From: Alloprevotella sp.
GTDB lineage: Bacteria > Bacteroidota > Bacteroidia > Bacteroidales > Bacteroidaceae
Direction: 5' to 3'
Length of the DNA: 56,388 bases
Assembly: GCA_017476545.1 (NCBI GenBank)
Contig: JAFUZP010000016.1
Span: 1 to 56,388, forward strand
The first letter of the stretch is position 1. The number at the start of each line of letters is the position of its first letter. A program made the position numbers and the translations under genes. Below are positions 2,134 through 34,886 of the stretch, piece by piece. A model generated the notes under the pieces. The model was not told where the DNA came from, made no database searches, and saw only the letters and a list, made by a program, of their open reading frames with translations.

Positions 2134-2217
2134 CGTAACCCTACGGTTACGGCGTACTGACCCTAGGGTTAGTTCTTCATAGCCCTATAGTTGCTTCTTC
2201 CTAACCCTAGGGGCAGT
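2134..2217. repeat. 22-nt palindromic repeat array, class I (4 units)
   Basis: Four CCCTA cores start at 2139, 2161, 2183 and 2205, exactly 22 nt apart. The units are imperfect palindromes, for example GTAACCCTACGGTTAC and ACCCTAGGGT. The array sits in the ~285-bp gap between the amylase stop and the promoter of the leader-peptide gene. The rest of that gap (1964-2133) holds nothing I can identify. The same class occurs at 13992, 25929 and 34813. Confidence 0.85.
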
Positions 2218-2249
2218 TTTCCCTGACAGGTTATTTCCCCGCCCCGGGC

Positions 2250-2280
2250 TTGGCCTGTCGGAAGTATTTTCCTATCTTTG
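2250..2280 (+). promoter_or_regulatory. Bacteroidota promoter of leader copy A
   Basis: A TTG-type -33 element at 2250-2252 and a perfect -7 element TATCTTTG at 2273-2280 are separated by 20 nt. The arrangement matches the equivalent promoter at 7321-7352. Transcription should begin near 2287. Confidence 0.75.
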
Positions 2281-2286
2281 CGGCGG

Positions 2287-2627
2287 AAATCAGATACTTG
2301 ACGATGCCTTACGCGTATATATATAATAACGGTATAGCCGCTTCCGCCGCAGCGGAGGCCGGCTTCGCCCGTGTTTACGGGGCGGGAAGTGCCCGAATTA
2401 CCCCCCCTCACGCTTTGGTTATCAAGTAGTTACAGATATACAAGTACGTATTGAGCGGCGCATCGCGCCTCCGTCTGTGGGGTGTGGTGCGCCGCTTGTC
2501 GTATGTCTGCCCCAAGCCCAAAACCCTCCAGCCCCCTCCCGTCCCCCCGAGAGGGGGAGGCTTGGGTTGGCGCGGAAGGTATGAAGTAAACATTAATTAA
2601 TCATTAACTCATAAAAACAATAACGTT
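2287..2627 (+). promoter_or_regulatory. Long structured 5' leader, copy A
   Basis: About 340 nt of transcribed leader precede the gene at 2628 and are nearly identical to 7359-7701. Visible structures are a hairpin at 2341-2358 (CTTCCGC, loop CGCA, GCGGAGG), a long stem pairing AGCGGCGCA at 2454-2462 with TGCGCCGCT at 2488-2496, and a C-rich/G-rich hairpin near 2530-2570 closed by CCAAGCC/GGCTTGG. A 41-codon ORF fills the first part. The last 45 nt are A-rich (taatcattaactcat). Regulation by RNA structure or by translation of the upstream ORF is inferred. I recognise no known riboswitch class. Confidence 0.7.
2304..2429 (+). CDS. 41-aa upstream ORF in leader A
   Basis: ATG to TAG, 41 codons, starting about 17 nt after the predicted transcription start: MPYAYIYNNG... 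ending PPHALVIK. The second leader at 7376-7501 keeps the same length and frame with five residue changes and no indel. Most base differences between copies change the residue, so it may be conserved as RNA rather than peptide. Either a leader peptide or a by-product of a structured RNA is possible. Confidence 0.4.
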   Translation: MPYAYIYNNGIAASAAAEAGFARVYGAGSARITPPHALVIK

Positions 2628-3173
2628 ATGGAAGAAAGAATGAAACTGAACAGTGCGCTGCCCGCCGATATGCAGGCAGCGGAACCGGGTGCGGACGCCG
2701 CGCCCAAGGCGAAGAAACCCTATGTGAAGCCCACGATGCAGGTCTTCCCGCTGGGTTGCCAGCTGCTGGCGGCATCTACGACTAATGACTGCAAACCCTT
2801 CTGTATCTGTGACTATGAAGATAGTGGTACTGCTTCAACCTTATTACAAGAAGCTCTAGCCGATGCAGGCTGGCTGACGAGGAATTACGAACACTGGTCG
2901 GTTAGGTATTCTGGATTTTGTGAGGCTGTCACTGCTGACCCCAATGGGTTTGGAAAATTTTTAGAGCGTTACAAGGTGTGGGATGGCGAGTTAGGTGAGT
3001 GGACTGTGTCACCTTTTGCCTTAGCGCTACAGCAGCCTGGAGCGACTATCATTTCCTGTAGAGCCAATGATGAAGAGGCATATTTTGAGGCAGACGTACC
3101 GGGTTGTGGAACGCTACCTGCTCGGATTGGCTTCAACTACTATTGTGAGTTTTTTTGTGAAGATTATATATAA
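2628..3173 (+). CDS. Variable-cargo protein with YVKPTMQVFPLGC leader, copy A
   Basis: A 181-residue protein of unknown function. It starts MEERMKLN, has an Ala/Pro-rich linker, then the segment YVKPTMQVFPLGCQLLAAS (residues ~35-53), which is almost identical to the protein at 7702. After that the two proteins share nothing. The cargo here has a CxxxCxC cluster (CKPFCIC), two further Cys near the C-terminus, and an aromatic-acidic composition. The cargo DNA is visibly more AT-rich than the conserved 5' part, which suggests a swapped-in module. The 5' leader and promoter are duplicated as well. The conserved segment ending in LLAAS looks like an export or processing leader (inference). A bacteriocin, toxin or secreted peptide is possible but unproven. 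Confidence 0.7.
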   Translation: MEERMKLNSALPADMQAAEPGADAAPKAKKPYVKPTMQVFPLGCQLLAASTTNDCKPFCICDYEDSGTASTLLQEALADAGWLTRNYEHWSVRYSGFCEAVTADPNGFGKFLERYKVWDGELGEWTVSPFALALQQPGATIISCRANDEEAYFEADVPGCGTLPARIGFNYYCEFFCEDYI

Positions 3174-3212
3174 TTGGGACTAACCATAGGTGGTCTTTTC
3201 ATATGCCCCGCA

Positions 3213-3797
3213 TTATAGGCTTCCGCCCATGCTGAACTCGCAGCCACAGTAGCGCTGGTTGTAGAAAGCGTATTCTTTGAGTAGCTGATTGCGCCGTTCC
3301 TGTAAGCCGCCCTTGCGCCAGTTCTGTCCCCAGAAGCGGGTACCCGGTACGGCCGCTTCCGCCGCACGTCCGGCCTGCTCTATCTGTTCGAGCCGCTTCC
3401 AGCGCGAGGAAGCAAGCGTTGTGGTGAACCAAGGGATGCTTTGCCGCAATGCCTCGTGTGCCGCCCGCGTGAGCCGCATCGTGAAGCAGGTTTGGCAGCG
3501 TGCACCGCGTTCCGGCTCCCGCTCCATACCGGCCACGCACCCGCGCCAACTGTCGTGGTCGTAGTCACCGTCCAGCCAGCGCAGTCCGAGGCTCTCGGCG
3601 TGTCGCTTGCTCTCCGCCTTGCGTATGTCGTACTCCTCGCGGGGAAAGATGTTGGGGTTGTAATAATAAAGGACCGGGCGGATACCGGCACCGAGCATCC
3701 ACTCCACGATGGCGCTTGAACAGGGTGCGCAGCAGGCGTGGAGCAGTACTTCCCGGATGCCCTCGGGAGCGGTTATGGCGTTGCGTGGTGTGGTCAT
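3213..3797 (-). CDS. queH: Epoxyqueuosine reductase QueH
   Basis: This 194-residue protein is a QueH (DUF208) family epoxyqueuosine reductase. It performs the last step of queuosine synthesis in tRNA and is the cobalamin-independent counterpart of QueG. The signature is LLHACCAPC near residues 18-26, followed by RCQTCF and a C-terminal RYCGCEFS. These cysteines belong to the metal and redox centres known for the family. I chose the ATG at 3797 (MTTPRNA...): it lies just downstream of a TACCTTTG promoter, and longer in-frame starts would lie upstream of that promoter and run into the divergent pyrH region. Family length is about 180-210 aa, which fits. Confidence 0.93.
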   Translation of the reverse strand: MTTPRNAITAPEGIREVLLHACCAPCSSAIVEWMLGAGIRPVLYYYNPNIFPREEYDIRKAESKRHAESLGLRWLDGDYDHDSWRGCVAGMEREPERGARCQTCFTMRLTRAAHEALRQSIPWFTTTLASSRWKRLEQIEQAGRAAEAAVPGTRFWGQNWRKGGLQERRNQLLKEYAFYNQRYCGCEFSMGGSL

Positions 3798-3820
3798 TCT
3801 TGCTTTTGGGTTGCGTGCCG

Positions 3821-3828
3821 CAAAGGTA
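3821..3828 (-). promoter_or_regulatory. -7 promoter element of queH
   Basis: On the minus strand this reads TACCTTTG, the Bacteroidota -7 consensus, about 24 bases before the queH start. It is divergent from, and close to, the pyrH promoter. No good -33 element is visible. Confidence 0.65.
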
Positions 3829-3844
3829 ATAACTTCGGCGGAAC

Positions 3845-3877
3845 TTTGCGGGATATGGGGAAATAATGCTATCTTTG
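3845..3877 (+). promoter_or_regulatory. Promoter of pyrH
   Basis: TTTG at 3845-3848, 21 nt spacer, TATCTTTG at 3870-3877: a textbook Bacteroidota sigma-factor promoter. Transcription should start near 3884, giving a UTR of about 20 nt. Confidence 0.85.
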
Positions 3878-3902
3878 CCGCCGATGAAACCAGATAAAGA
3901 TT

Positions 3903-4613
3903 ATGGCAAAATTCAACAGAATACTCTTGAAGCTCAGTGGTGAGAGCCTTGCCGGAGGGCAGGGACATGGCATTGACACGGAGCGGCTCGCGGCCTATGC
4001 GCGGCAGATTAAGGAAATCGTGGATATGGGCGTGCAGGTGGGTATCGTCATCGGCGGCGGCAACATCTTCCGTGGCCTGCAGGGCGCGGGAAAAGGCTTC
4101 GACCGCGTGAAGGGCGACCAGATGGGCATGTGCGCCACGGTCATCAATTCGCTTGCACTATCTTCCGCGCTGGATGCAGCCGGCGTGCCTAACCGCGTGC
4201 TGACGGCCATACGGATGGAGCCCATCGGCGAGTTCTATTCCAAGTGGAAAGCCTTGGAAGCACTCAGACGCGGCGAGGTGGTTATCTGTTCCGGTGGTAC
4301 GGGCAATCCCTACTTCACGACGGACACGGGTTCCACGCTGCGCGGCATAGAGATGGAGGCCGACGTGATGCTGAAGGGCACGCGTGTGGACGGCGTCTAT
4401 ACTGCCGACCCCGAGAAAGACCCGACTGCCACAAAATTCTCCGACATATCCTATGGCGAAGTGCTGCGCCGAGGGCTGCGTGTAATGGACCTCTCCGCCA
4501 TCACGATGGCGCAGGAGAACGGACTGCCTATCTACGTCTTCGACATGGACACCCCGGGCAATCTTCGCAAAGTCCTTGACGGGGAGAACATCGGTACCTA
4601 CGTACACGCCTGA
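3903..4613 (+). CDS. pyrH: UMP kinase PyrH
   Basis: This 236-residue enzyme phosphorylates UMP to UDP with ATP in pyrimidine nucleotide synthesis in the cytoplasm. The amino-acid-kinase fold is evident: LLKLSGESLAG near the N-terminus, the glycine-rich VIGGGNIFRG, and the UMP/ATP-binding stretch SGGTGNPYFTTDT. YTADPEKDP follows in the C-terminal half. Length agrees with bacterial PyrH (~240 aa). The start ATG lies about 20 nt past the predicted transcription start and follows an A-rich stretch. It is transcribed alone, divergent from queH, and ends before a strong hairpin shared with the convergent nuclease gene. Confidence 0.97.
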   Translation: MAKFNRILLKLSGESLAGGQGHGIDTERLAAYARQIKEIVDMGVQVGIVIGGGNIFRGLQGAGKGFDRVKGDQMGMCATVINSLALSSALDAAGVPNRVLTAIRMEPIGEFYSKWKALEALRRGEVVICSGGTGNPYFTTDTGSTLRGIEMEADVMLKGTRVDGVYTADPEKDPTATKFSDISYGEVLRRGLRVMDLSAITMAQENGLPIYVFDMDTPGNLRKVLDGENIGTYVHA

Positions 4614-4632
4614 GGCACCGTACCGATGAATG

Positions 4633-4674
4633 CACGGCAGGCATCCTGACCTTCTGGTCGGGATGCCTGCCGTG
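4633..4674. terminator. Bidirectional hairpin between convergent genes
   Basis: A perfect 14-bp inverted repeat, CACGGCAGGCATCC at 4633-4646 and GGATGCCTGCCGTG at 4661-4674, lies between the convergent pyrH and nuclease genes. It lacks a clean T-run on either side, so its terminator role is inferred from position and stem strength. Confidence 0.6.
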
Positions 4675-4694
4675 TCCTGTCTTGGCGTACTGCC

Positions 4695-5567
4695 TCAGCG
4701 GCGGAAGGTATATTCCCGGTCCTGTCTGCGGCGGCCTCGTTGCTGGAAGTGGTTCTCCGAGCTGGCCGTCCGCCATCGCCATTGCCCCGTATCGCTCCGC
4801 GCTTCCACCGCATACTCTATATCATCGGGTAGGGCAGGGAAGAAGTCGATGCCCGTCTGCCGCTCCACATCGTCCACCGTGCAGGCATAGTCGTTCACGC
4901 TTCCCTTACAGTTCGCGTTGGGGAAGATGTAGCCGATGGCCTCATAGCCCTTTCCCGTGTTCCGCAGGAGCACCTTGAAGAAACTGTCCGGAACGGCCAC
5001 CCGTCCGCTCCCGATGGTGCGGGGCTTGCTGCCTGTGAAGATAGGGCCGCAGGCGATGTACACAGTTGTTCCGCCGCGCGCCATGGAGCGTATGCCCATT
5101 TCCAGGTCGTTCCACAGGCCTGCGTTCAGCGCGCCGCGCTGGGGGCAGATGTTGGAGAGGTAGAAACTTTCGCGCATGGCCTTGCTGTTCCACTTCATGT
5201 CGCCTGCCGGTGCCATGTGGCCGCGCCCGTAGCCGGAGCGCGAGTAGTCCGCATTGCTGGCCGACCGCCCCTTCGCCTGCGGGTCGGGCTGGAACTCGCC
5301 CTGCCGCTCCTGCCGTCCGCGCGCCTCTTCGGGGGTCAGTTCGTAGCACACCCAGTTGGGCTGGCGGCGGTCGGCGTTGTAGGACGTGGTGTAGCCCATA
5401 TGCTCGATGATTTGTTCCGTCATGCCGCGCGGGCTTCGCGGCGTTTCCAGGTGCCGCGCGGCGCTCTCCGCACCTGTTCCGGCGGCAAAGGTGTCCAGCT
5501 GTTGCTGCTCCCGCTTGCACGCAGCGGCGAGCAGGAGTAAGGAAAATAGGAGTAGCAGTTGTCTCAT
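4695..5567 (-). CDS. Lipoprotein DNA/RNA non-specific endonuclease
   Basis: About 290 residues. The N-terminus MRQLLLLFSLLLLAAAC is a lipoprotein signal with a lipobox ending at Cys17, so the enzyme should sit on an outer membrane or periplasmic face. The body matches the NUC1/Serratia-type DNA/RNA non-specific endonuclease family (beta-beta-alpha metal fold). The motif GRGHMAPAGD holds the catalytic His, where DRGHxxPA is the usual form, and a downstream NAGLWNDLE carries the metal-ligand Asn. An in-frame ATG six codons upstream (5585) is a possible alternative start; I preferred 5567 because it gives the more compact signal peptide. It follows the tRNA-Met and its terminator on the same strand. 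Confidence 0.88.
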   Translation of the reverse strand: MRQLLLLFSLLLLAAACKREQQQLDTFAAGTGAESAARHLETPRSPRGMTEQIIEHMGYTTSYNADRRQPNWVCYELTPEEARGRQERQGEFQPDPQAKGRSASNADYSRSGYGRGHMAPAGDMKWNSKAMRESFYLSNICPQRGALNAGLWNDLEMGIRSMARGGTTVYIACGPIFTGSKPRTIGSGRVAVPDSFFKVLLRNTGKGYEAIGYIFPNANCKGSVNDYACTVDDVERQTGIDFFPALPDDIEYAVEARSDTGQWRWRTASSENHFQQRGRRRQDREYTFRR

Positions 5568-5590
5568 CTTAGGGAGTCGCGTCATTGTTC

Positions 5591-5632
5591 GTAAAACCTA
5601 AGAGCGGCTGCACTTGGTGGTGCAACCGCTCT
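5591..5632 (-). terminator. Terminator after tRNA-Met
   Basis: On the minus strand, AGAGCGG-T-TGCAC pairs with GTGCA-G-CCGCTCT, followed by TAGGTTTTAC. It begins three bases after the tRNA 3' end, so it terminates the tRNA transcript. Confidence 0.75.
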
Positions 5633-5635
5633 CCG

Positions 5636-5709: not shown

Positions 5710-5738
5710 ATGATGCTTCCGCTGTTGGGATGCGGGTG

Positions 5739-5872: not shown

Positions 5873-5904
5873 CGGGCGTATCACGAACAAACACTCGCCG
5901 AAAC

Positions 5905-7161: not shown

Positions 7162-7320
7162 TGCGCCACGCTACAATCCTCATGGCTCGCCGTGAGATGC
7201 CATACTCCAAGCGGATGAAGCAACCGCTGGGAAATGGATAACCACACCGCAGAGAAGTTCCCGAAGCGGCGTGGAATTAATAGCTGAATTAGTAGTTATG
7301 CCACTTTTCCCGGCCCTCGC

Positions 7321-7352
7321 CTTGGCGGAACGAGAATATTTGCATATTTTTG
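7321..7352 (+). promoter_or_regulatory. Promoter of leader copy B
   Basis: CTTG at 7321-7324, 20-nt spacer, TATTTTTG at 7345-7352. The layout is the same as the promoter of copy A, and sequence similarity between the copies starts around here. Confidence 0.75.
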
Positions 7353-7358
7353 CAGACG

Positions 7359-7701
7359 AAAATAGCAACTTGACGATGCCTTACGCGTATATATATAATA
7401 TAGGTATAGCCGCTTCCGCGTGTGCGGAGGCCGGCTCTGCCCATGTTTACGGGGCGGGAAGTGCCCGAACTACCCCCCCTCACGCTTTGGTTATCAAGTA
7501 GTTACAGATATACGAGTACGTATTGAGCGGCGCATCGCGCCCCCTTCAAGGGGGTGTGGTGCGCCGCTTGGCGTATGTCTGCCCCAAGGCCAAAACCATC
7601 CAGCCCCCCTCCCGTCCCCCCCGAGAGGGGGAGGCTTGGGTCGGCGCGGAAGGTATGAAGTAAGCATTAAGTAATCATTAACTCATTAAAACAATAACGT
7701 T
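7359..7701 (+). promoter_or_regulatory. Long structured 5' leader, copy B
   Basis: A near-identical copy of the leader at 2287-2627. The first hairpin keeps its stem (CTTCCGC at 7413-7419, GCGGAGG at 7424-7430) but has loop GTGT instead of CGCA. The second stem (AGCGGCGCA 7526-7534 with TGCGCCGCT 7560-7568) is unchanged, while its tip is rewritten from a weak pairing to a strong CCCCC/GGGGG pairing. Such stem-preserving change suggests the RNA fold matters. Confidence 0.7.
7376..7501 (+). CDS. 41-aa upstream ORF in leader B
   Basis: Same start, stop and length as the ORF at 2304-2429: MPYAYIYNIG... ending PPHALVIK. It differs at five residues (N9I, A16C, F21S, R23H, I31T). Its position right after the promoter is compatible with a translated leader peptide, but the excess of residue-changing differences argues that the amino-acid sequence itself may not be under strong constraint. 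Confidence 0.4.
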   Translation: MPYAYIYNIGIAASACAEAGSAHVYGAGSARTTPPHALVIK

Positions 7702-8310
7702 ATGGAAGAAAGAATGGACATGAACGGCGCGCCGTGCGCCGGCGAGCGGGCTTTGGAGGCGGCTGCGGTGGCCGCGCCGGCGCGGGAGAAGCAGTATGTG
7801 AAGCCCACGATGCAGGTGTTCCCGCTGGGCTGCGGGCTGCTGGCGGCGAGCGCGTCTGCGGAACCGCCCGTGCGGGTCATCCTCAACGCTATCGGCGTTG
7901 ACTACTATTGGATACCAACTCAACAACATCAGGGTTTTCGGCTCGACGGAGGCTACTGGCTCGATGGCGGTACGGGTGTTGCTGTGCAGGTCTGGTTAGC
8001 CACTTCGTTTTCTTGTGATAATCATCTACCCCGCGTCACTTTCACCGCCAATAAAAAAGATAATACATTCTCCTGTGCTAGGATCACGCCCCTCTACAGC
8101 AATACTTTCTGTGGAGACGCTGTGTGGGACGCTATATCAGCTGGGGATTATGGGCTGAGTGATGACCCAATTTCATTCGAAGATGAAGAATATGGGGATG
8201 AAGTAGGCTGGGACGCGGCAGACTTCTTCGCCAACGCGGAGTTTGACGAGTGCGAGGACGGCTCCCGCTTCTCCGGAACGTATCAAGGGCGCCGTTTCGT
8301 TTCTGAATAA
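7702..8310 (+). CDS. Variable-cargo protein with YVKPTMQVFPLGC leader, copy B
   Basis: A 202-residue partner of the gene at 2628. The start MEERMDMN and the segment YVKPTMQVFPLGCGLLAAS (residues ~34-52) are shared almost base for base. The linker between them and everything after it are unrelated. The cargo is acidic (many Asp/Glu near the C-terminus), with four scattered Cys and several Trp/Tyr. I do not recognise a domain. Shared promoter, shared structured leader and unrelated cargo suggest a cassette family in which the 3' module is exchanged. A 29-codon ORF and a palindromic array follow. Confidence 0.7.
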   Translation: MEERMDMNGAPCAGERALEAAAVAAPAREKQYVKPTMQVFPLGCGLLAASASAEPPVRVILNAIGVDYYWIPTQQHQGFRLDGGYWLDGGTGVAVQVWLATSFSCDNHLPRVTFTANKKDNTFSCARITPLYSNTFCGDAVWDAISAGDYGLSDDPISFEDEEYGDEVGWDAADFFANAEFDECEDGSRFSGTYQGRRFVSE

Positions 8311-8468: not shown

Positions 8469-8558
8469 AGTTGAGTGCGCATTCAACATATAGTTGAGTG
8501 CGCACTCAACTGGCAGTACAGTGCGCACTCAACTATGACCTGAGTGCGCACTCAACTC
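8469..8558. repeat. 23-nt palindromic repeat array, class II (4 units)
   Basis: Four palindromes built on GTTGAGTGCGCACTCAAC have GTGCGC cores starting at 8475, 8498, 8521 and 8544, exactly 23 nt apart. Linkers differ (catat, ggcagtaca, atgacc). The array lies between the variable-cargo gene and recR. The sequence is unrelated to the CCCTA arrays but the architecture is the same. Confidence 0.9.
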
Positions 8559-8634
8559 AGGGCCGAGTTATACCGTACCCGCAATACGTCTGTATCCCAA
8601 CGCGTTACGTAAGCACGGCGGGCTGCCGCCGAAG

Positions 8635-12245: not shown

Positions 12246-12290
12246 TTCTCGCGGATGGTACTCTCCCGGTGCTGGGGGTAAAACAAAAAA

Positions 12291-12397
12291 ATTGATTGTC
12301 TCCCGACAACCAATCTTCACTAACCTTAAATCTAATACCATGAAAAACATTGCAAAAATACGCTTACATTCGTAATCCTGCAAGCCCCCGCAGGATT
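12291..12397 (+). other. Hairpin / mini-ORF / terminator element
   Basis: The gap between udk and the MATE gene holds a compact unit. It has a hairpin ATTGaTTGTC/GACAAcCAAT at 12291-12314, an A-rich stretch (CTAACCTTAAATCTAATACC), and an 11-codon ORF MKNIAKIRLHS at 12340-12375. A terminator-like hairpin AATCCTGC/GCAGGATT follows at 12374-12397. It could be a small RNA, a leader-peptide attenuator, or the 5' stub of a lost gene. No TAnnTTTG box is evident just upstream. Confidence 0.4.
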
Positions 12398-13988: not shown

Positions 13989-14075
13989 TAACCCTACGGT
14001 CAGTTTTTCCTAACCCTACGGTCAGTTTTTCCTAACCCTGCGGTTAGTATTTCGTAACCCTGTGGTCAGTTTTTT
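13989..14075. repeat. 22-nt palindromic repeat array, class I (4 units)
   Basis: CCCTA/CCCTG cores start at 13992, 14014, 14036 and 14058, exactly 22 nt apart. The first two units are identical (TAACCCTACGGTCAGTTTTT) and the later two vary in the core. It lies between convergent 3' ends of the MATE and ABC genes, so it is not a promoter-proximal element here. Confidence 0.9.
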
Positions 14076-20299: not shown

Positions 20300-20417
20300 A
20301 GACTATTCCGCCAGATTGCGCGCAAGGAAAGTGCGCGGGATGGCCGCACCCATAGGGTTACGAAGAACTGCCGGGGAGGGGGAGTCACCCGAGAAAGGTG
20401 TGCGTTTGCTGCACCCT

Positions 20418-25900: not shown

Positions 25901-25928
25901 CCCACCTTCATCGGCCATGGTGGAGTGG

Positions 25929-26030
25929 CCCTAGGGTTACGGAGAGCTATCCCTAGGGTTACGGAGAGCTATCCCTAGGGGTACGAGGAACTATCCCTAT
26001 GGTTACGGGGAACTATCCCTAGGGTTAGCG
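25929..26030. repeat. 22-nt palindromic repeat array, class I (5 units)
   Basis: CCCTA cores start at 25929, 25951, 25973, 25995 and 26017, all exactly 22 nt apart. Units are close to TCCCTAGGGTTACGGAGAGC, with CCCTAGGG as a perfect 8-bp palindrome in three of five. It lies between rnpB and the serC promoter. Base changes fall mainly at the core's sixth position and in the linker. Confidence 0.92.
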
Positions 26031-28346: not shown

Positions 28347-29594
28347 ATGGCAACAATAAAACCGTTTCGTGGACTACGTCCCCCACGCGAACTTGTTGAG
28401 CGTGTAGAGAGCCGTCCCTATGATGTGCTGGAAAGCGACGAGGCTCGCGTAGAAGCAGGCGACAATGAAATGTCGCTCTATCACATCATCAAACCCGAAA
28501 TTGACTTCCCCGAAGGCACAAGCGAGTACGACCCGCGCGTTTACGAGAAGGCTGCCGAGAACTTCCAGAAGTTCCAGGATAAAGGCTGGCTCGTACAGGA
28601 CGAAAAGGAAATGTACTATATCTATGCCCAGACGATGAATGGTAAGACGCAGTACGGCCTCGTCATTGGTGCCCATACCAAGGACTACCAGAGCGGCCTC
28701 ATCAAGAAGCACGAGCTTACACGTCGCGACAAGGAAGAAGACCGCATGAAGCACGTCCGCGTGAACAATGCCAACATCGAGCCAGTGTTCTTTGCCTATC
28801 CCGACAATGCCGTACTCAATGAGCTCATCATGCGCTATGCCGCCACTGAACCCGTCTATGACTTCATCGCACCGATTGATGGCTTCGGACATAAGTTCTG
28901 GCTCGTAAGCGACGATGCCGACATCGCGCTCATTACGGAGGAATTTGCCAAGATGCCCGCTCTCTACATCGCCGACGGCCACCATCGCAGTGCCGCCGCC
29001 GCACTCGTCGGAGCGGAGAAGGCAGCCCAGAATCCTGACAACAAAGGTACGGAGGAATACAATTACTTCATGGCTGTAGCATTTCAGGCCTCGCAGCTTA
29101 CAATCCTGGACTACAACCGCGTGGTTAAGGACCTCAACGGCCGCACGCCCGCAGAATTCCTCGCCGCGCTGGAGAAGAATTTCGTCGTGGCAGACAAGGG
29201 TAGGGAGGAATACCGTCCGCAGTGTGCCCATGAGTTCTCCCTCTACCTTGAAGGCCGCTGGTACAGCCTCACGGCGCGTCCCGGCACCTACGACGAGAGC
29301 GACCCCATCGGCGTGCTCGACGTGGACATCAGCAGCCGCCTCATCCTGGACGAACTGCTCGGCATCAAGGACCTGCGCTCCGACAAGCGCATTGACTTCG
29401 TAGGCGGCCTGCGCGGGCTGGGCGAACTGAAGCGTCGCGTCGATAGCGGCGAGATGCAGATGGCCCTCGCCCTCTACCCCGTCACGATGCAGCAAATCAT
29501 GAACATCGCCGACAGCGGAAAGATCATGCCGCCGAAGGCCACGTGGTTCGAGCCCAAGCTCCGCAGCGGCCTCGTCATCCACAAACTCAGCTGA
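28347..29594 (+). CDS. DUF1015 family protein
   Basis: A 415-residue cytosolic protein of the DUF1015 family. Diagnostic parts: KPFRGLRPP and SRPYDVL at the N-terminus, HELTRRDKEEDRMKH, and IADGHHRSAAAAL with conserved His-His-Arg, reminiscent of ParB/sulfiredoxin-type nucleotide sites. The gene starts six bases after the serA-like stop, so it is part of the serine operon; a link to serine metabolism is inferred from that. A terminator follows. Confidence 0.88.
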   Translation: MATIKPFRGLRPPRELVERVESRPYDVLESDEARVEAGDNEMSLYHIIKPEIDFPEGTSEYDPRVYEKAAENFQKFQDKGWLVQDEKEMYYIYAQTMNGKTQYGLVIGAHTKDYQSGLIKKHELTRRDKEEDRMKHVRVNNANIEPVFFAYPDNAVLNELIMRYAATEPVYDFIAPIDGFGHKFWLVSDDADIALITEEFAKMPALYIADGHHRSAAAALVGAEKAAQNPDNKGTEEYNYFMAVAFQASQLTILDYNRVVKDLNGRTPAEFLAALEKNFVVADKGREEYRPQCAHEFSLYLEGRWYSLTARPGTYDESDPIGVLDVDISSRLILDELLGIKDLRSDKRIDFVGGLRGLGELKRRVDSGEMQMALALYPVTMQQIMNIADSGKIMPPKATWFEPKLRSGLVIHKLS

Positions 29595-29616
29595 AAATAA
29601 TATTATATAGCAATGT

Positions 29617-29656
29617 ACGCACGGGGGCAGTCAATGGAAGCCTTCGTGCGTCTTTC
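29617..29656 (+). terminator. Terminator of serine operon
   Basis: ACGCACG (29617-29623) pairs with CGTGCGT (29645-29651), then CTTTCTTATTATTTG. It separates the serine genes from cas1 (start 29715). No promoter consensus for cas1 is clear in the remaining 60 bases. Confidence 0.65.
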
Positions 29657-29714
29657 TTATTATTTGCTGTTGCGGGATATTCACGATTAGTTTTAACGCT
29701 TCAAACAATATGTT

Positions 29715-30575
29715 ATGCCAAAACAAACTTTGTTCCTGACTTCGGCGTTGGATGTCAGTGTAGAAAACGGACTATTAAAAATGAAAAAGACGGATGAGCA
29801 GAGCAATCCGCTTTATAGGAGTTTGGAAGACATACACATTATTATAGTAGATAACCACTCCGTACATTTTACCGTTCCTTCACTCTGCCTTCTTGGCAAG
29901 TCTCATATCCCTGTAGTGTTCTGTGATGAGCGTCACATGCCGATAACTGTTCTCACCGAATTAGACGGCAGTTCAGTCCAAGGAAAGATATACCGCGCCC
30001 AGCTTGGGGTAGGAGCCGTGAAAAAGAAACGGCTTTGGAAGCAGGTTGTAGAATGGAAGATAAGAAACCAATCACGCTTGTTAGAGCGTTTAGAGCTCGG
30101 TAACGATCCCTTGAAACGGTATTACCAGAATGTGTGTAGCGGCGACTCTACAAATCGTGAGGGACAGGCTGCAAAACTCTACTGGAAGACACTCTTTGGC
30201 AGGACTTTCATTCGTAGCCGCTATGGGGAGGCTCCCAACAACCTCTTGAACTATGGCTACTCTATACTGCGTGCATATATTGCCCGTGCGTTGATAGGAA
30301 GCGGTCTCCTTCCATCTATAGGAATCAATCATAAAAGTTATTTTAACGCCCTGCCGCTAGCAGACGACATCATGGAGCCATATCGTCCTTTTATTGATGA
30401 AGCGGTCTTCTATATCTTCGCGGGTGGTGTTACCGATATAGACAAAACGGTTAAGTATGAACTCGCCAACATCTTTTACGAGCGAATCTCCCTGAACCAA
30501 CTCTCACAAACCACGCACTCTTTAGCAGCCTGTTTCGCAGGAGAGGCAGACTGTATTTACTATCCGTTAATTTAG
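29715..30575 (+). CDS. cas1: CRISPR-associated endonuclease Cas1 (type II-like)
   Basis: A 286-residue Cas1 integrase, the catalytic subunit that inserts spacers at CRISPR repeats. The N-terminal beta-domain (TLFLTSALDVSVENGLL... SLEDIHIIIVDNHSV... VVFCDERHMP) resembles type II Cas1. The three metal ligands appear intact: E149 in NREGQAAKLYW, H206 in GINHKSYFN, and E221 in DIMEPYRP. Length is normal (~290-300). The DNA is clearly more AT-rich than the flanking housekeeping genes, suggesting acquisition. No cas9, csn2, cas4 or effector gene lies in the window, and no array follows cas2. Six bases separate it from cas2. Confidence 0.93.
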   Translation: MPKQTLFLTSALDVSVENGLLKMKKTDEQSNPLYRSLEDIHIIIVDNHSVHFTVPSLCLLGKSHIPVVFCDERHMPITVLTELDGSSVQGKIYRAQLGVGAVKKKRLWKQVVEWKIRNQSRLLERLELGNDPLKRYYQNVCSGDSTNREGQAAKLYWKTLFGRTFIRSRYGEAPNNLLNYGYSILRAYIARALIGSGLLPSIGINHKSYFNALPLADDIMEPYRPFIDEAVFYIFAGGVTDIDKTVKYELANIFYERISLNQLSQTTHSLAACFAGEADCIYYPLI

Positions 30576-30580
30576 TCCCC

Positions 30581-30901
30581 ATGTTCCTATATGTATATTT
30601 TCGCTTTCCTGTACACGCTCGAACCGGGCGGGAGCAGCAGAAACAGTTTTGCAAATTGCTAGAACGCGCAGGTTTCAGTCGTTTGCACCAAGGGCTTTAT
30701 ATAAGGCATTGTTTCACACAGGCAGGTGCTGCAGCCCATAAGGAACGAATATTGGAAATTATTCCCTCTAAATGCCAAATAAGTATTATATTTGTCCCCG
30801 ACAAGCAGCAATCATATAGTTATCACTATTGGGGGATAAAACGTATAAAAAAAGCGTCCGACGACAGCCTAAAAGCAAAAGGAACTATCGAATTCATTTA
30901 A
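30581..30901 (+). CDS. cas2: CRISPR-associated protein Cas2
   Basis: A 106-residue Cas2, the structural partner of Cas1. It begins MFLYVYFRFPVHARTGRE, the usual first beta strand and turn, then LLERAGFSRLHQGLYIRHC, and ends with a strand carrying ISIIFVPDKQ. The first strand normally carries a conserved Asp (FDLP), here Arg8 in YFRFPV, so the metal-dependent nuclease activity of some Cas2 proteins may be absent. That activity is not required for spacer acquisition in studied systems. The low-GC composition matches cas1. A 35-nt repeat starts 46 bases after the stop. Confidence 0.88.
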   Translation: MFLYVYFRFPVHARTGREQQKQFCKLLERAGFSRLHQGLYIRHCFTQAGAAAHKERILEIIPSKCQISIIFVPDKQQSYSYHYWGIKRIKKASDDSLKAKGTIEFI

Positions 30902-30947
30902 GAAAATCCTTACAAAATTTTGGCTCTCAGGAGAATGTACCGAATAG

Positions 30948-30982
30948 GTTTGAAATTATAGAATAAGCATTATGATTAAAAC
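30948..30982 (+). repeat. GTTT...AAAC repeat, copy 1
   Basis: 35 nt beginning GTTTGAAATTATAGAATAAG and ending TATGATTAAAAC. It matches copy 2 at 31541 except for one missing T. It lies where a CRISPR array would start after cas2, but no second repeat occurs at spacer distance. Confidence 0.7.
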
Positions 30983-31024
30983 AAAAAAATCTGACAAACG
31001 TAACCACAGATGCCCGCAAATCCT

Positions 31025-31032
31025 TACCTTTG
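31025..31032 (+). promoter_or_regulatory. -7 element of the 152-aa gene
   Basis: TACCTTTG, fitting TAnnTTTG, 22 bases before the ATG at 31054. An in-frame TTG overlaps the end of the box and so cannot be the start. Confidence 0.65.
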
Positions 31033-31053
31033 CGGACATACAAACTATATGAC

Positions 31054-31512
31054 ATGAAAATATCTGACTATGCCATAATGCCATGGGCGTTCTTCTGCGC
31101 CCTTATGGCCGGCGGGGTGTACTTCCTGATAGGCTTCCCCATCCTCATCGCCCTGGTCTATATCGCGGACTTCTTCATCGAAGAGCACAAACTCAAGAAA
31201 CGGCGCAAAGAAGAGTTCAGGCAGTACAACGAATGGGCGCAGGAAGACCTCGGACGCGGAGTGGACTGGCCGGAAATCGTCTGGTACGACAAAGTGCTCT
31301 TCCGGAAGTTCCTGGAAGAGGCGGACGGGGACAAGGAACAAGCGGCGCGGAAAGTCTCCGAACTGATGATGCCGCGCGACAAGTCCATCGGCGAAGAGTG
31401 GGCGGCGTACGCCCGCGAACTTGAAACCGGGATATGGACTCACCCGCATACCCCTAAAGACCACAAGATTTCCCCCAAAGGCCCGCTAATCCCGGAAATA
31501 GAAGAATACTGA
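31054..31512 (+). CDS. Small membrane-anchored protein, unknown
   Basis: A 152-residue protein with one long or two short membrane segments at about residues 6-40 (IMPWAFFCALMAGGVYFLIGFPILIALV). A charged cytoplasmic-looking tail follows, rich in Lys/Arg/Glu and Trp (HKLKKRRKEEF... GVDWPEIVWYDK), ending in a Pro-rich stretch. I recognise no family. It has its own promoter and is bracketed by two near-identical 35/36-nt repeats, directly behind cas1-cas2. Its GC-rich codon use resembles the chromosome, not the cas genes. Confidence 0.75.
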   Translation: MKISDYAIMPWAFFCALMAGGVYFLIGFPILIALVYIADFFIEEHKLKKRRKEEFRQYNEWAQEDLGRGVDWPEIVWYDKVLFRKFLEEADGDKEQAARKVSELMMPRDKSIGEEWAAYARELETGIWTHPHTPKDHKISPKGPLIPEIEEY

Positions 31513-31540
31513 GCCTCTGGGACGGAGCACCAGCACTCCG

Positions 31541-31576
31541 GTTTGAAATTATAGAATTAAGCATTATGATTAAAAC
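31541..31576 (+). repeat. GTTT...AAAC repeat, copy 2
   Basis: 36 nt from GTTTGAAATTATAGAATTAA to ATGATTAAAAC, 558 bp after copy 1. It ends 12 bases before the CstA-like start. TTTG at 31542 and TATGATTA at 31566 are 20 nt apart, so the repeat may also contain a weak promoter for that gene. Confidence 0.7.
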
Positions 31577-31588
31577 AAAAACTATAAT

Positions 31589-33013
31589 ATGGTATCATTT
31601 ACATTGAGTCTCCTGCTGCTCGTACTGGGCTATTTCCTCTACGGCCGTTTTGTGGAGCGCATCTTTGGTCCCGATGACCGCCAGACCCCGGCGCTGGCAA
31701 AGGCCGACGGCGTGGACTTCATGGTACTTCCGGGATGGAAGATTTTCATGATCCAGTTTCTGAACATTGCGGGTACAGGGCCTATCTTCGGAGCCATCAT
31801 GGGTGCGAAGTTCGGCCCTGCGGCCTATTTCTGGATTGTGCTGGGTTGCATCTTTGCGGGTGCGGTCCACGACTATTTCAGCGGCATGCTTTCCATGCGT
31901 CACGACGGAGCGAGTATGCCCGAGCTGGTGGGCACCTATCTGGGAAAGAAAGCTAAGACCCTGTTGTTGGCATTCAGCATCGTGGTGCTTCTGATGGTAG
32001 GGGCGGTGTTCGTGTACAGTCCCGCCATCATCCTCGGCGGGATGACAGGAGGTTCGCAGACGTCCATCATGCTTTGGATTGTGGTGATATTCGGCTACTA
32101 CGCCATGGCCACCATGCTCCCCATCGACAAGATTATCGGTCGCGTCTATCCGCTCTTCGCCTTTGCCTTGCTGTTCATGGCGGTTGCGCTGATGGTTGTG
32201 CTTTTCATCAAGTGGCCCTCTCTGCCCGAAGTGTGGGACATGGCAACTACAGAGAATCTGGCCAAGCAGCCCGTCATCCCCTGTCTTTTCATTACGATTG
32301 CCTGCGGAGCCATTAGTGGTTTCCATGCTACGCAGAGCCCGCTGATGGCTCGCTGCCTCGACTCAGAGCGCAAAGGGCGCCCCGTCTTTTACGGCGCGAT
32401 GATCACGGAGGGCGTAGTTGCTCTCATTTGGGCTACGGTCGCCAGTTGGTTCTTCTACGACGGCGGTGCTGCCGAGGTGGGTAGCACGATGGCGGCGCAG
32501 GCCCCCGAGGTGGTTACGGCCGTGAGCAACAACTGGCTCGGCGTGCTCGGTGGCATCCTGGCACTTCTGGGCGTTGTCGCAGCCCCCATCACCAGCGGCG
32601 ATACGGCGTTCCGCTCCGCACGTCTCATCGTGGCCGACTTCCTCCACTTCAACCAGCATCCCGTGCGCAACCGCCTGCTCGTCAGCCTGCCCCTCTTCGG
32701 CATCGCTGCCCTGCTGCTTTGGTTCAACATTGCCGATAAGGAGGGGTTCAATACCATCTGGGGCTACTTTGCCTGGAGTAATCAAACGTTGGCCTGCTTC
32801 ATGTTGTGGACGGCTACGGTCTATCTTTCGCGCCGCAAGGGGTATGCCTATCTCGTCATGCTGCTGCCGGCATTGTTCATGACAACCGTCTGCGTCACGT
32901 ACATCTGTATTGCCAAGATAGGCTTCGGCCTCAGTCCCGCCATTTCCTACGCCATCGGCGGCGCGGCCTTCCTCGTCAGCCTTATCTGGTTCCTCGTATA
33001 TAAAAGACACTAG
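31589..33013 (+). CDS. cstA: CstA-like carbon-starvation transporter
   Basis: A 474-residue inner-membrane protein of the CstA family, whose members import pyruvate and peptides and are induced under carbon limitation. The conserved motifs QFLNIAGTGPIFGAIMG and GAVHDYFSGMLSMRHDG near the N-terminus and PITSGDTAFRSARLI in the C-terminal half are diagnostic. It lacks the C-terminal part of E. coli CstA (~700 aa), consistent with the shorter form common in Bacteroidota. The upstream 36-nt repeat forms most of its leader. A PPC-domain gene follows after 33 nt. Confidence 0.93.
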   Translation: MVSFTLSLLLLVLGYFLYGRFVERIFGPDDRQTPALAKADGVDFMVLPGWKIFMIQFLNIAGTGPIFGAIMGAKFGPAAYFWIVLGCIFAGAVHDYFSGMLSMRHDGASMPELVGTYLGKKAKTLLLAFSIVVLLMVGAVFVYSPAIILGGMTGGSQTSIMLWIVVIFGYYAMATMLPIDKIIGRVYPLFAFALLFMAVALMVVLFIKWPSLPEVWDMATTENLAKQPVIPCLFITIACGAISGFHATQSPLMARCLDSERKGRPVFYGAMITEGVVALIWATVASWFFYDGGAAEVGSTMAAQAPEVVTAVSNNWLGVLGGILALLGVVAAPITSGDTAFRSARLIVADFLHFNQHPVRNRLLVSLPLFGIAALLLWFNIADKEGFNTIWGYFAWSNQTLACFMLWTATVYLSRRKGYAYLVMLLPALFMTTVCVTYICIAKIGFGLSPAISYAIGGAAFLVSLIWFLVYKRH

Positions 33014-33046
33014 AATAAATAATCAAAACGTGAAACTTGGGTGATC

Positions 33047-33484
33047 ATGGAATACAGAAAGATTGGCGATAACTACTATGTCCGTATGGACCGGGGGGAT
33101 GAAATAGTCAGCATCCTTCTGGGAATTTGCGAAAGGGAGTCCATACCATCTGCTGTTTTCTCCGGCATTGGTGGCTGTCAGCGTGCAGAGCTTCAAGTGT
33201 TCATCCCTGAGGCAGGCAGCTTTGAGACAGAGCGGTTAGAAGGAATGCTCGAGCTAGTATCGCTTAATGGTAACGTGGTTAGAGACGAAACCGGGCAGCT
33301 ATTCCACCATACCCATGCAATGTTTTCATTCAAAGAGGGCGGTCGGCATAGTATGGCTGGGGGACACCTGAAAGCTACAACGGTTCTCTATACTGCAGAA
33401 ATAGAGCTGCGTCCTACGATTGGTGGGGCTATTGGCAGGAAGTCTGACCCTGAGACGGGCACTGGATTCTGGAACTTCAAATGA
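33047..33484 (+). CDS. PPC/DUF296 domain protein
   Basis: A 145-residue single-domain protein of the PPC (plant and prokaryote conserved, DUF296) family. YYVRMDRGDEIVSILLGICE and ESIPSAVFSGIGGCQRAEL fit, as does the HTHAMFSF and AGGHLKATTVLYTAEIEL region with the conserved His residues. In plants this domain sits next to AT-hooks in DNA-binding proteins; free-standing bacterial forms are trimers of unknown role. I used the ATG at 33047; an in-frame GTG at 33041 is two codons earlier. Probably transcribed with the CstA-like gene. Confidence 0.88.
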   Translation: MEYRKIGDNYYVRMDRGDEIVSILLGICERESIPSAVFSGIGGCQRAELQVFIPEAGSFETERLEGMLELVSLNGNVVRDETGQLFHHTHAMFSFKEGGRHSMAGGHLKATTVLYTAEIELRPTIGGAIGRKSDPETGTGFWNFK

Positions 33485-33628
33485 GGAACTGGATAATAAT
33501 ACCCAAGAAAGCCCTGGCCGTCCGCGGCACAGTTCGTGTCAAGCTCCCTTCGCGCGCGTATATATAATAAAGGTGTTTCCGGCAGTCCGTTCTCCCTTTC
33601 CCCTTTGACCGTTTTACCGCCTCCCGGA

Positions 33629-33712
33629 GGGAGATAAGGGAACTGCCGCCGTTCCCTTATGGAACGAGCCTCGTTCCCTTATGGAACTCCCGCCGTTCCA
33701 TAAGCCTCCCCC
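33629..33712. repeat. 22-nt palindromic repeat array, class III (4 units)
   Basis: Unit starts at 33629, 33651, 33673 and 33695, exactly 22 nt apart. The central units read GTTCCCTTATGGAAC, a palindrome of GTTCC and GGAAC; the outer two are degenerate. The 395-bp gap that holds it (33485-33880) has otherwise only a run GCGTATATATAATAAA near 33553 and the third AAGCATTA repeat. Confidence 0.85.
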
Positions 33713-33829
33713 CGGAAGCCCCCTGTCAGGAGCAGGCCGCCCGCCGCCGCGTCCGCGCGGCAGTTTCCTGCTGGCACGCTTGCATTTTCCCCCGCCTTGC
33801 GTTATCTTAGCGGCCAATAGGGGGTGTAA

Positions 33830-33862
33830 CTTGAAATTATAGCGCAAGCATTACTATTAAAC
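33830..33862 (+). repeat. Diverged third copy of the GTTT...AAAC repeat
   Basis: CTTGAAATTATAGCGCAAGC then ATTACTATTAAAC. It shares TTGAAATTATAG, AAGCATTA and ATTAAA with copies 1 and 2. It ends 18 bases before the ATG at 33881, which favours a leader role over a CRISPR role. Confidence 0.55.
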
Positions 33863-33880
33863 CAGCAAAAGCTTATAACG

Positions 33881-34504
33881 ATGCGACAATTCCGATTACT
33901 CAACGCTTTGTGCAAAGCAACCGTCAGCGTTGTATTTGCATTATTCAGCCTCAGTGCTGCCAGCCAGGACATGATAGACCTGTCAAAGACGCCCGTCTTG
34001 TGCAACCAAACCCAAGTTTTTAAGCTCAAGGAAGTGCTGCCCGATGGATATGTATATTACTATGACAGCGACAACACCGAAATCGTGCTCACTCGCGCCG
34101 AAGGTAAAATAAACCGCTATACCTCGAAGTTTCCCAAGTCGCCTTACATTCATTCGTGCGACTATGTGGTAAAGAAGTTGGGCGAAACGGTGACAATGAT
34201 TGCCTGCTTGGAGCAGTATCAAGAGGAGAACCCCTACTATGTACTCTTCGCCGCCGATAGTCAGGAGGAGTACAGCAGCAAATGGCAACAGCGGGTTAGG
34301 GGAGGAGTCAGTCATTGCGACTGGCTTTTCAGCGTGCCTGTTGATGGAAGCTTCATTTACGAAATAGACATCGACCAACTCCGGCAGATGTCCTCACTAC
34401 TTGAGCAGAGCAAGCAACGCAACGATTTGGTAGAATTCAATATCAACCAGCTCAACATGGCTATCAGCTCTTTTGATGAGGGTGACGACTGCGAAGCCGA
34501 ATAG
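33881..34504 (+). CDS. Secreted protein of unknown function
   Basis: A 207-residue protein with a signal peptide (KATVSVVFALFSLSAASQ, cleavage near residue 29). The mature part is Tyr/Asp/Glu-rich with four Cys in the first 150 residues and an acidic tail ending FDEGDDCEAE. No domain is recognised. The gene is less GC-rich than its neighbours. A diverged AAGCATTA leader repeat precedes it, and a permease remnant follows directly. Confidence 0.75.
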   Translation: MRQFRLLNALCKATVSVVFALFSLSAASQDMIDLSKTPVLCNQTQVFKLKEVLPDGYVYYYDSDNTEIVLTRAEGKINRYTSKFPKSPYIHSCDYVVKKLGETVTMIACLEQYQEENPYYVLFAADSQEEYSSKWQQRVRGGVSHCDWLFSVPVDGSFIYEIDIDQLRQMSSLLEQSKQRNDLVEFNINQLNMAISSFDEGDDCEAE

Positions 34505-34535
34505 ATGGCGGTCAATTCTCGAATTGATGGAATAA

Positions 34536-34760
34536 GCAACGATACGGAAATACGCCGCCCGCCTCACACTGCGCTCATCGGGTCACAGCGTCCTACTCCC
34601 AGCTACGACGCTGTGGGGCGCGGACATCGCCCTGCTCTGCCACATTCTTTCGCAACTGCCCGGCGGGCGGGGCATACTCCCCATCAACGTGCTGCCCCCG
34701 CTCGTGGGCGTGCCCGCCGTTTTCCTCATCCTGTTACGGAGCCGGAAAGGAAATTTATGA
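34536..34760 (+). pseudogene. 3' remnant of a FecCD/BtuC-type ABC permease
   Basis: A 74-codon frame without a proper start translates to the C-terminal end of an iron-siderophore or cobalamin ABC permease: ARLTLRSSGHSVLLPATTLW, GADIALLCHIL, then LPINVLPPLVGVPAVFLILL and TGA. This matches the last ~70 residues of FecCD-family proteins, including the substrate-gate LLPA and the final helix. The remaining ~250 residues are missing. An in-frame TAA lies just upstream, next to a TTGATGGAATAAGCAACGA leader-like repeat, so deletion or recombination at that repeat is plausible. Confidence 0.6.
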
Positions 34761-34812
34761 GCTATAGCGGGGCGGGAAAGATGGCAAGGCGCCCAGGCTG
34801 CCATTTACGTGA

Positions 34813-34886
34813 CCCTATGGTCAGTTCTCCGTATCCCTATGGATAGTTTTCCCTAACCCTATGGATAGTTTTCCGCAACCCTCGGG
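34813..34886. repeat. 22-nt palindromic repeat array, class I (4 units)
   Basis: CCCTA/CCCTC cores start at 34813, 34835, 34857 and 34879, exactly 22 nt apart. Core type is mainly CCCTATGG. It lies in the non-coding gap between the permease remnant and the promoter at 35000. No gene is seen between 34761 and 35085. Confidence 0.9.

What the first reader, a model, noticed from the sequence alone, without database searches (positions are those of the whole stretch)
2134..34886. Intergenic CCCTA arrays with an exact 22-nt period at four loci
Core starts are 2139/2161/2183/2205, 13992/14014/14036/14058, 25929/25951/25973/25995/26017 and 34813/34835/34857/34879: every step is 22. Cores are palindromic (CCCTAGGG or GTAACC...GGTTAC) with locus-specific central bases, and linkers vary. 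Two helical turns per unit would place all dyads on one face of DNA, ideal for cooperative binding. All four are outside genes and contexts differ (convergent, tandem, after an RNA gene), so a promoter role is unlikely. A single unit is at ~20350.
Basis: seen in the sequence. Interest (0 to 1): 0.78.

Follow-up and report, generated by a model that had tools for sequence, protein, structure and literature searches.

The report
Genome-wide arrays of four 22-bp palindromes
An uncultured gut Bacteroidales genome carries, roughly every 10 kb between its genes, a short block of usually four look-alike palindromes exactly 22 bp apart, and several relatives carry blocks of the same design made of quite different sequence, which suggests a fast-changing set of chromosomal binding sites whose function is still unproven.

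Summary
All 13 steps in the four window arrays are 22. In 710 of 1,980 kb I found 69 such loci: 45 have exactly four units, and 192 of 195 successive units within 100 bp stand 22 apart. None of the 67 with two or more units overlaps a called gene by over 30 bp. Copies are over-regularly spaced (gap CV 0.49 against 0.91 for random intergenic sites, 0 of 5,000 simulations). Units within an array are hardly more alike than units of different arrays, unlike slippage products. A sequence-agnostic scan finds 21-23-bp palindromic arrays of unrelated sequence in several congeners, some high-copy. Between two sister species cores are 92% identical, linkers 77%, flanks 73%, and places are kept (9 of 9). 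But the sister-species family is nearly absent from a large contig, and no binding protein is known. Best reading: protein-bound sites under selection, probably organising the chromosome; protein and role are inferred. Main rival: a REP-like mobile repeat. Verdict: real, a new variant of intergenic palindromic repeats, function unproven.

The parts
2136..2215 (+). Array 1: four CCnYRnGG palindromic units, core starts 2139, 2161, 2183, 2205; upstream of a repeated leader-gene cassette
   Evidence: Read directly; profile scores 22-38; cassette relation
13989..14068 (+). Array 2: four units, core starts 13992, 14014, 14036, 14058; between convergent MatE and ABC-transporter genes
   Evidence: scores 31-38; gene names
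20347..20360 (-). Single unit CACCCATAGGGTTA, core 20350-20357, between the convergent RecG-type helicase and glycine-transporter genes
   Evidence: Score 19.6, no partner unit; gene names
25926..26027 (-). Array 3: five units, core starts 25929, 25951, 25973, 25995, 26017; between the RNase P RNA gene and a class-V aminotransferase gene
   Evidence: scores 24-33; RNase P match; aminotransferase
34810..34889 (+). Array 4: four units, core starts 34813, 34835, 34857, 34879
   Evidence: scores 24-38
8469..8568 (.). Array of another family: four AGTTGAGTGCGCACTCAACT-type palindromes, 23-bp steps (AGTGCGCA starts 8474, 8497, 8520, 8543); similar arrays at C11:66714 and C7:364
33639..33699 (.). Array of another family: GTTCC-N5-GGAAC units, 22-bp steps; similar arrays with like flanks at C11:34817 and C11:74317

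Best explanation
The arrays are binding sites for a dyad-recognising DNA-binding protein, kept by selection, each a platform of usually four dyads at a fixed two-turn pitch, placed about 10 kb apart in intergenic DNA without regard to genes. The most likely role is chromosome organisation (anchoring, looping or domain marking). SHOWN: unit, pitch, preferred copy number, intergenic and context-free placement, over-regular spacing in this genome, core conservation between two sister species, recurrence of the design with unrelated sequences in other species. INFERRED: that a protein binds dsDNA, that four sites cooperate, that the role is architectural, and that site families replace one another as the protein changes.
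For: 45 of 69 arrays have four units; a geometric copy-number law of the same mean would give about 10 four-unit arrays of 67. 192 of 195 successive distances up to 100 bp are 22. None of 67 arrays overlaps a called gene by over 30 bp; divergent, tandem and convergent gaps are all used; no orientation bias. Gap CV 0.49 against 0.91; 3 of 58 gaps under 3 kb against 12.8 expected. In G014, with another sequence, the smallest of 34 gaps is 8.3 kb (0 of 10,000 uniform simulations as large); in G053 the smallest of 36 is 5.1 kb (P=0.010). Linker identity within arrays 0.487, between arrays 0.473. Orthologous G014-G016 arrays (6 pairs): core 182 of 198 identical, linker 92 of 120, flank 2,139 of 2,938. 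At core positions 3/6, 0 of 262 units deviate on both sides, 33 expected, so each keeps at least one consensus half-site there. Conservation stops at the array edge in 46 arrays.
Against: No binding protein identified. In G014 the strict pattern lists no place on contig C1 (366 kb) and in G016 one on C1 (689 kb); a relaxed check finds 0 and 4 pairs in 120-kb samples of those contigs, so that family is unevenly spread over the genome. Gap CV is not significant in G016 (14 gaps, P=0.22) or G057 (17 gaps, P=0.42). The scan found no 21-23-bp array in the sampled DNA of G004, G040, G043 and G048 (TRF did show 21-bp repeats in G048). In G053 the two halves of a unit are almost never complementary beside the central AT (3 of 107, 28 expected), which a plain homodimer site does not explain and a stem with a 4-base loop would tolerate. 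Several families of different apparent age in one genome look as much like mobile repeats as like one protein's sites. Array neighbours are not shared with distant congeners (0 of 4 and 0 of 7).
Confidence: 0.4

Rival explanations
1. REP/BIME-like mobile repeats: hairpin elements spread by a single-strand transposase or other unknown machinery, kept apart by target immunity or by selection against close pairs.
For: Intergenic, high-copy, imperfect palindromes, lineage-specific, several families per genome, some with near-identical copies and shared flanks; units avoid complementary centres; 25 of 67 arrays share some flank sequence with another array; two moved or inverted blocks between G014 and G016 have most ends near arrays.
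Against: 5 of 11 genomes searched have no Y1-transposase match at E<=0.001 (G045, G042, G012, G020, G040), the first four of them with arrays, though G020 is only 56% complete; none of 5 such genes checked (of 9 matches listed) has units of its genome's array family in array spacing within 1.5 kb; no target duplication at 47 arrays; no subfamilies among 32 non-cassette arrays; arrays stay in place between sister species.
Confidence: 0.28
2. RNA stem-loops: tandem hairpins acting as terminators, mRNA stabilisers or small RNAs.
For: Each unit can form a short stem with a small loop; weak covariation at one stem pair (-1/8, z=4.0); in some relatives symmetric arms flank a conserved 8-9-base centre.
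Against: 13 arrays lie in divergent gaps by my gene calls, one of them in fact after the RNase P gene; no sense-strand bias (15 against 14); the pair at core positions 3/6 is anti-correlated (z=-8.2) and not Watson-Crick in 188 of 262 units, the -1/8 pair in 108 of 262 (G-U not counted); no Rfam match at the arrays at gathering scores.
Confidence: 0.12
3. Operators of one global transcription factor.
For: Dyad symmetry, YR centre, half-site logic.
Against: 17 of 67 arrays lie in convergent gaps by my gene calls and copies are regularly spaced; no link to gene direction.
Confidence: 0.1
4. Minisatellites made by local slippage.
For: Tandem repeats of fixed period; a few longer arrays (8 and 9 units, and a 10-unit array of another family).
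Against: Units within an array are hardly more alike than units of different arrays, and copy number peaks at four.
Confidence: 0.02

Closest known systems
REP sequences and BIMEs with their TnpA-REP (RAYT) transposases
   Same: Short imperfect palindromes, intergenic, often >100 copies, clustered, several lineage-specific families per genome (passages of PMC6006769; abstract starts of PMC2817692 and PMC3733652).
   Different: Exact 21-23-bp pitch with units mostly in one orientation (128 of 141 neighbours; BIMEs alternate per the abstract start of PMC2817692), preference for four units, over-regular spacing, no linked transposase found.
BrickBuilt MITE of Porphyromonas gingivalis
   Same: Bacteroidales, intergenic, tandem 23-nt units, species-restricted (abstract and section 5 of PMC4596501).
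   Different: BrickBuilt has 1 to 22.8 repeats, 19 copies, leader and tail segments with inverted-repeat ends; here usually four units, about 145 arrays by extrapolation, no conserved flank outside a gene cassette.
PINSR of Prevotella intermedia/nigrescens
   Same: Intergenic, 177-184 copies, lineage-specific, no terminal inverted repeats, about three-quarters of places shared between two strains (passages of PMC4755523).
   Different: A 188-bp unit; its sequence is in a figure that is not held, so a 21-23-bp substructure could not be checked.
Bacterial chromosomal loop anchors such as the Rok system of Bacillus subtilis
   Same: Dispersed sites proposed to organise the chromosome (search listing and abstract starts only).
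   Different: Per the abstract start of PMC9757077, Rok prefers AT-rich regions; here precise palindromic arrays, and no protein known.

Membership tests
REP/BIME | High-copy intergenic imperfect palindrome | tested here: met
   69 array loci in 710 kb; 0 of 67 overlap a called gene by over 30 bp
REP/BIME | Cognate RAYT gene flanked by the repeats | tested here: not met
   PF01797 absent from 5 of 11 genomes searched; 5 of the 9 matched genes checked (L038, L320, L321, L323, L324), none with array units within 1.5 kb apart from six scattered matches of a very degenerate core in L038 that are not 22 apart; own genome is 80% complete
REP/BIME | Conserved guide tetranucleotide (GTAG type) at the hairpin foot | not tested
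   No fixed foot was noticed in the unit profile, but no dedicated test was made
MITE | Target-site duplication | tested here: not met
   Best direct-repeat counts within the range of 30 shuffles for k=4,5,6,8,9 in 47 arrays
MITE | Terminal inverted repeats of a longer element with a related transposon | tested here: inconclusive
   Outer half-sites read CtTAaCC and GGTTAgG, but no conserved sequence lies outside in 46 arrays; no transposon was sought by these ends
Minisatellite | Units of one array clearly more alike than units of different arrays | tested here: not met
   Linker 0.487 against 0.473, core 0.755 against 0.729 (difference small, no significance test made)
Chromosome-organising binding site | Binding by a dedicated protein | not testable with these tools
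   Needs ChIP or pull-down
Chromosome-organising binding site | Regular spacing along the chromosome | tested here: inconclusive
   Clear in G000; minimum gap large in G014 and G053; CV not significant in G016 and G057; the G014/G016 family is nearly absent from one large contig

The most novel reading that the evidence does not exclude
A chromosome-scaffolding code in Bacteroidales: each species has a dedicated DNA-binding protein and one to two hundred four-dyad platforms some 10 kb apart that fold or mark its own chromosome, and the address sequence is rewritten between species while the geometry (about four dyads, 21-22 bp pitch, an asymmetric base pair beside the centre) is kept.
Probability: 0.22. 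Interest if true: 0.92.

Novelty: new variant of a known kind. Interest (0 to 1): 0.73.

Why it matters
Intergenic palindromic repeats are often read as mobile debris. Here pitch, copy number and, in this genome, chromosomal spacing are tightly kept while the sequence is unrelated from species to species, which is what one expects if the geometry is the function. If so, this is a bacterial chromosome-organising system with very fast turnover of its address sequence, and the arrays are ready-made bait to isolate its protein. If instead it is a mobile repeat, it is one with an unknown engine and strong avoidance of its own copies.

Tried and rejected
Slippage, terminator, promoter and MITE readings were tested and disfavoured. 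REP/RAYT: Y1 transposase searched in 11 genomes, and 5 of its 9 matches inspected for array units. Rfam: nothing at the arrays. Phage carriage: 0 hits for three strict array patterns in viral contigs. The sequence upstream of the nearest serC-like genes in relatives, read by eye, showed no recognisable counterpart of the array. A first, stricter palindrome scan was too stringent (9 hits in G000) and was relaxed. A first regular expression for G057 units was wrong and gave 0; corrected. The orphan cas1-cas2 pair as a source of the arrays was considered and dropped: no CRISPR-like repeat array beside it. Literature searches listed nothing that by title or abstract start describes fixed 4 x 21-23-bp arrays; most listed papers were not opened, and the library lacks most subscription journals. 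Only passages of PMC4755523, PMC6006769 and PMC12306157, and the abstract and section 5 of PMC4596501, were read.

Limits: the G000 contigs were chosen from the first pattern listing and the transposase hit (C25), and are richer than the rest: 93 of the genome's 200 pattern hits lie in these 710 kb, so total arrays are extrapolated as 67 x 200/93, about 145. The array count extended arrays only at 21-23 or 43-45 bp (there 202 of 205 steps are 22); the step figures (139 of 141; 192 of 195) are free of that. Genes were called by a simple codon model that missed some window genes (for example 2628-3173 and the cas genes) and no RNA genes were included, so context counts are approximate. Places listed are capped and mostly exact matches, so G014, G016, G053 and G057 spacing uses a subset; two G014 places and one G016 place were added from the joined C2 contigs. 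Gap thresholds (3, 8, 5 kb) were chosen after seeing the gaps; the nulls for these relatives are uniform between first and last array of a contig, not restricted to intergenic DNA. Orthologous identities use 6 of the 8 pairs (both left-out pairs concern G014 array 105646, which has two candidate partners); cores were located by a pattern match in either sequence, and alignment of repeats tends to favour cores. In one search one of 68 typed strings had a one-base slip; the corrected count leaves 3 of 107 observed and 28 expected. After this check I lowered the best reading from 0.42 to 0.40 and the novel case from 0.25 to 0.22, because of the uneven spread in G014 and G016, and raised the REP-like rival from 0.27 to 0.28.
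Full report
What is there. Each unit is an imperfect palindrome, consensus TAACC-nYRn-GGTTA, with a pyrimidine-rich linker (66%) that gives the array an orientation. The lone unit at 20350 is real. The window also holds two palindromic arrays of other sequence with 22- or 23-bp steps, at about 8469-8568 and 33639-33699.

Genome-wide extent. The window is a contig of a 1.98-Mb, 80%-complete genome. Close matches to one window protein are named uncultured Bacteroidales, mostly ruminant or horse gut isolates by name; no tool named the window's own organism. CCCTA-N17-CCCTA occurs 200 times against 20 for the reversed control. In nine contigs (710 kb, chosen as told under limits) a profile search gave 69 loci: 2 of one unit, 5 of two, 6 of three, 45 of four, 7 of five, 2 of six, 1 of eight, 1 of nine. 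With no constraint on distance, 192 of 195 successive units within 100 bp stand 22 apart. Of the 67 arrays with two or more units none overlaps a called gene by over 30 bp; the gaps are tandem 29, convergent 17, divergent 13, contig edge 8, against 147, 48 and 56 of 251 intergenic gaps of 100 bp or more. Orientation is random relative to flanking genes in tandem gaps (15 against 14) and to the next array (29 of 58 alike). Scaled by pattern hits, the genome has about 145 arrays.

Spacing along the chromosome. Gaps between successive arrays average 10.3 kb over 58 gaps with CV 0.49; random choice among the same contigs' intergenic gaps gives 0.91 +/- 0.11, and 0 of 5,000 simulations reached the observed value; 3 gaps are under 3 kb against 12.8 expected. 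Without 15 arrays set aside as cassette-related or flank-sharing, the CV is 0.64 against 0.94 (P=0.001). So arrays keep their distance in this genome.

How they evolve. Units of one array are hardly more alike than units of different arrays (linker 0.487 against 0.473; core 0.755 against 0.729; 262 units, 62 arrays). Among 32 four-unit arrays outside that set, pairwise identity (mean 0.650, maximum 0.795) matches that after shuffling units between arrays (0.647; mean maximum 0.788). Flank information content falls to background at the array edge (46 arrays), and no flanking direct repeat exceeds the shuffle range (47 arrays). On the other side, BLAST finds some shared flank (23 bp or longer) for 25 of 67 arrays: 13 through a repeated leader-gene cassette, two through each other, the rest mostly in pairs. 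Cassette-linked arrays also share linkers (up to 95% identity), as expected from gene duplication. On balance this argues against slippage and against recent transposition of most arrays, and for old sites whose cores are kept while linkers drift.

A rule at the dyad centre. At core positions 3 and 6 (either side of the central YR) both halves never deviate together: 0 of 262 units, 33 expected, minimum 20 in 20,000 shuffles. Other pairs show no strong covariation except -1/8 (z=4.0). In G053, whose units read CAAAC-NATN-GTTTG, the two N are complementary in 3 of 107 units against 28 expected. In G057, 15 distinct units show 0 double deviations at the comparable base, too few to test. I read this as half-site logic (at least one good half) or as a need for an asymmetric centre; it is not what conserved RNA stems would give, though the 4-base loop of a hairpin would tolerate it.

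The design recurs with other sequences. A scan for three similar palindromes at any pitch from 12 to 40 gives, in this genome, 42 hits at 22, 6 at 23 and 2 elsewhere, and none in one block-shuffled copy. In congeners it gives hits at 21-22 in G014 (6 of 9 hits), G016 (2 of 5), G057 (4 of 4), G045 (1 of 1), G042 (2 of 5), G011 (2 of 2), the 41 short gene loci of the genus (2 of 2) and G053 (2 of 2); none at 20-24 in the G004, G040, G043 and G048 samples, none in five further 8-kb samples (three of them other genera), and 2 of 10 hits at 20-24 in 80 loci from the wider order. Inspection shows blocks of about three to five units: AACCAA-n3-TTGGTT and TACCTCnGAGGTA (G057), CACCGCGGTG (G045), CCAT-n3-ATGG (G014, G016), CAAAC-NATN-GTTTG (G053), and others. 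Some are high-copy: 175 and 103 hits of a two-unit pattern in G014 and G016, 68 in G057, 346 (both strands of a palindromic pattern) in G053, with 0 in every reversed control. A strict CCCTA pattern is absent from the other 100 genomes searched. The own genome has several further palindromic families of low copy number in the sample.

Sister-species test. In one contig of G014 and its counterpart in G016 the arrays sit at orthologous places: 9 of 9 reciprocal-best genes flanking a G014 array also flank a G016 array (6 more flank only a G016 array; 95 of 110 flank neither; Fisher P=1e-9). Across six orthologous arrays, cores are 182 of 198 identical, linkers 92 of 120, flanks 2,139 of 2,938. 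In these two species the array lies inside a larger diverged repeat of some 350-400 bp, unlike in G000. With G000 no flanking gene is shared (0 of 4 and 0 of 7), so placement is not tied to particular genes over long distances; the numbers are small. Spacing: in G014 the smallest of 34 gaps is 8.3 kb, larger than in any of 10,000 simulations, CV P=0.009; in G016 and G057 the smallest gaps are also large (P=0.04 each) but CV is not significant; in G053 the smallest of 36 is 5.1 kb (P=0.010). Against an even spread, the G014/G016 family is absent or nearly so from contig C1 of both (366 and 689 kb) by the strict pattern, and 120-kb samples of those contigs hold 0 and 4 relaxed pairs.

What it is not, and what it most likely is. 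REP elements are the nearest kind, but the defining transposase link fails where tested: 5 of 11 genomes have no Y1-transposase match, and none of five such genes checked carries array units within 1.5 kb. BrickBuilt of P. gingivalis has 23-nt repeats but 1 to 22.8 of them, with leader, tail and inverted ends. PINSR of Prevotella has similar copy number and intergenic placement, but its 188-bp sequence could not be compared. My best reading (0.40) is a set of dsDNA-binding platforms under selection, probably architectural; the protein, the binding and the role are inference. A REP-like mobile repeat with unknown engine and self-avoidance (0.28) is the main rival. I file it as a new variant of a known kind, intergenic palindromic repeats, because no test here shows a function that would make it a new kind.

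Noticed in passing
window 2220-2773 and 7306-7872: A repeated leader-gene cassette of about 550 bp (promoter-like leader, short ORF, then a protein starting MEERMKLNSALP... with KKPYVKPTMQVFPLGCQLLAAS and differing further on); 17 similar places in 710 kb, 13 of the 67 CCCTA arrays beside one.
   Followed up: partly
window 29715-30901: Adjacent type-II-like cas1 and cas2 genes; no CRISPR-like array in 29500-31700 and no Cas9 match among the window proteins given to Pfam.
   Followed up: partly
ends of the nine G000 contigs read: 8 of 18 contig ends lie within 1 kb of an array; C1 and C8 begin with the same 128 bp just before an array, so arrays may be places of strain variation or rearrangement.
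   Followed up: partly
G014 and G016 contig C2 (L300-L319, L065, L067): Two moved or inverted blocks between the sister species have most of their ends near arrays.
   Followed up: no
G014 and G016 contig C1 (samples L064, L163-L167, L066, L168-L172): The CCAT-n3-ATGG arrays are absent or rare on this large contig in both species while frequent on others; other tandem repeats of 21 bp occur there.
   Followed up: partly
L065, L067, L300-L319: In G014 and G016 the array sits in a 350-400-bp dispersed element with conserved islands, including inverted copies of a GCTATATGGCA-like motif; no Rfam match in L065 or L067.
   Followed up: partly
window 35968-47619: An open reading frame of 3,883 aa, followed by one of 1,799 aa with GLUG and beta-helix matches.
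   Followed up: no
window 12282-12350 (minus): FopS small RNA of Bacteroidetes, Rfam RF04319, 71.6 bits.
   Followed up: no
G000 C8:56780-57008: A ten-unit array of TGTAAA-n4-TTTACA at 22 bp, with units nearly alike, unlike the CCCTA arrays.
   Followed up: no
G000 C9:134883, C11:34817, C11:34924, C11:74317, C7:364, C10:5330, C3:33639: Other palindromic families often sit near CCCTA arrays: 7 of 15 within 1.5 kb, about 28% expected.
   Followed up: partly
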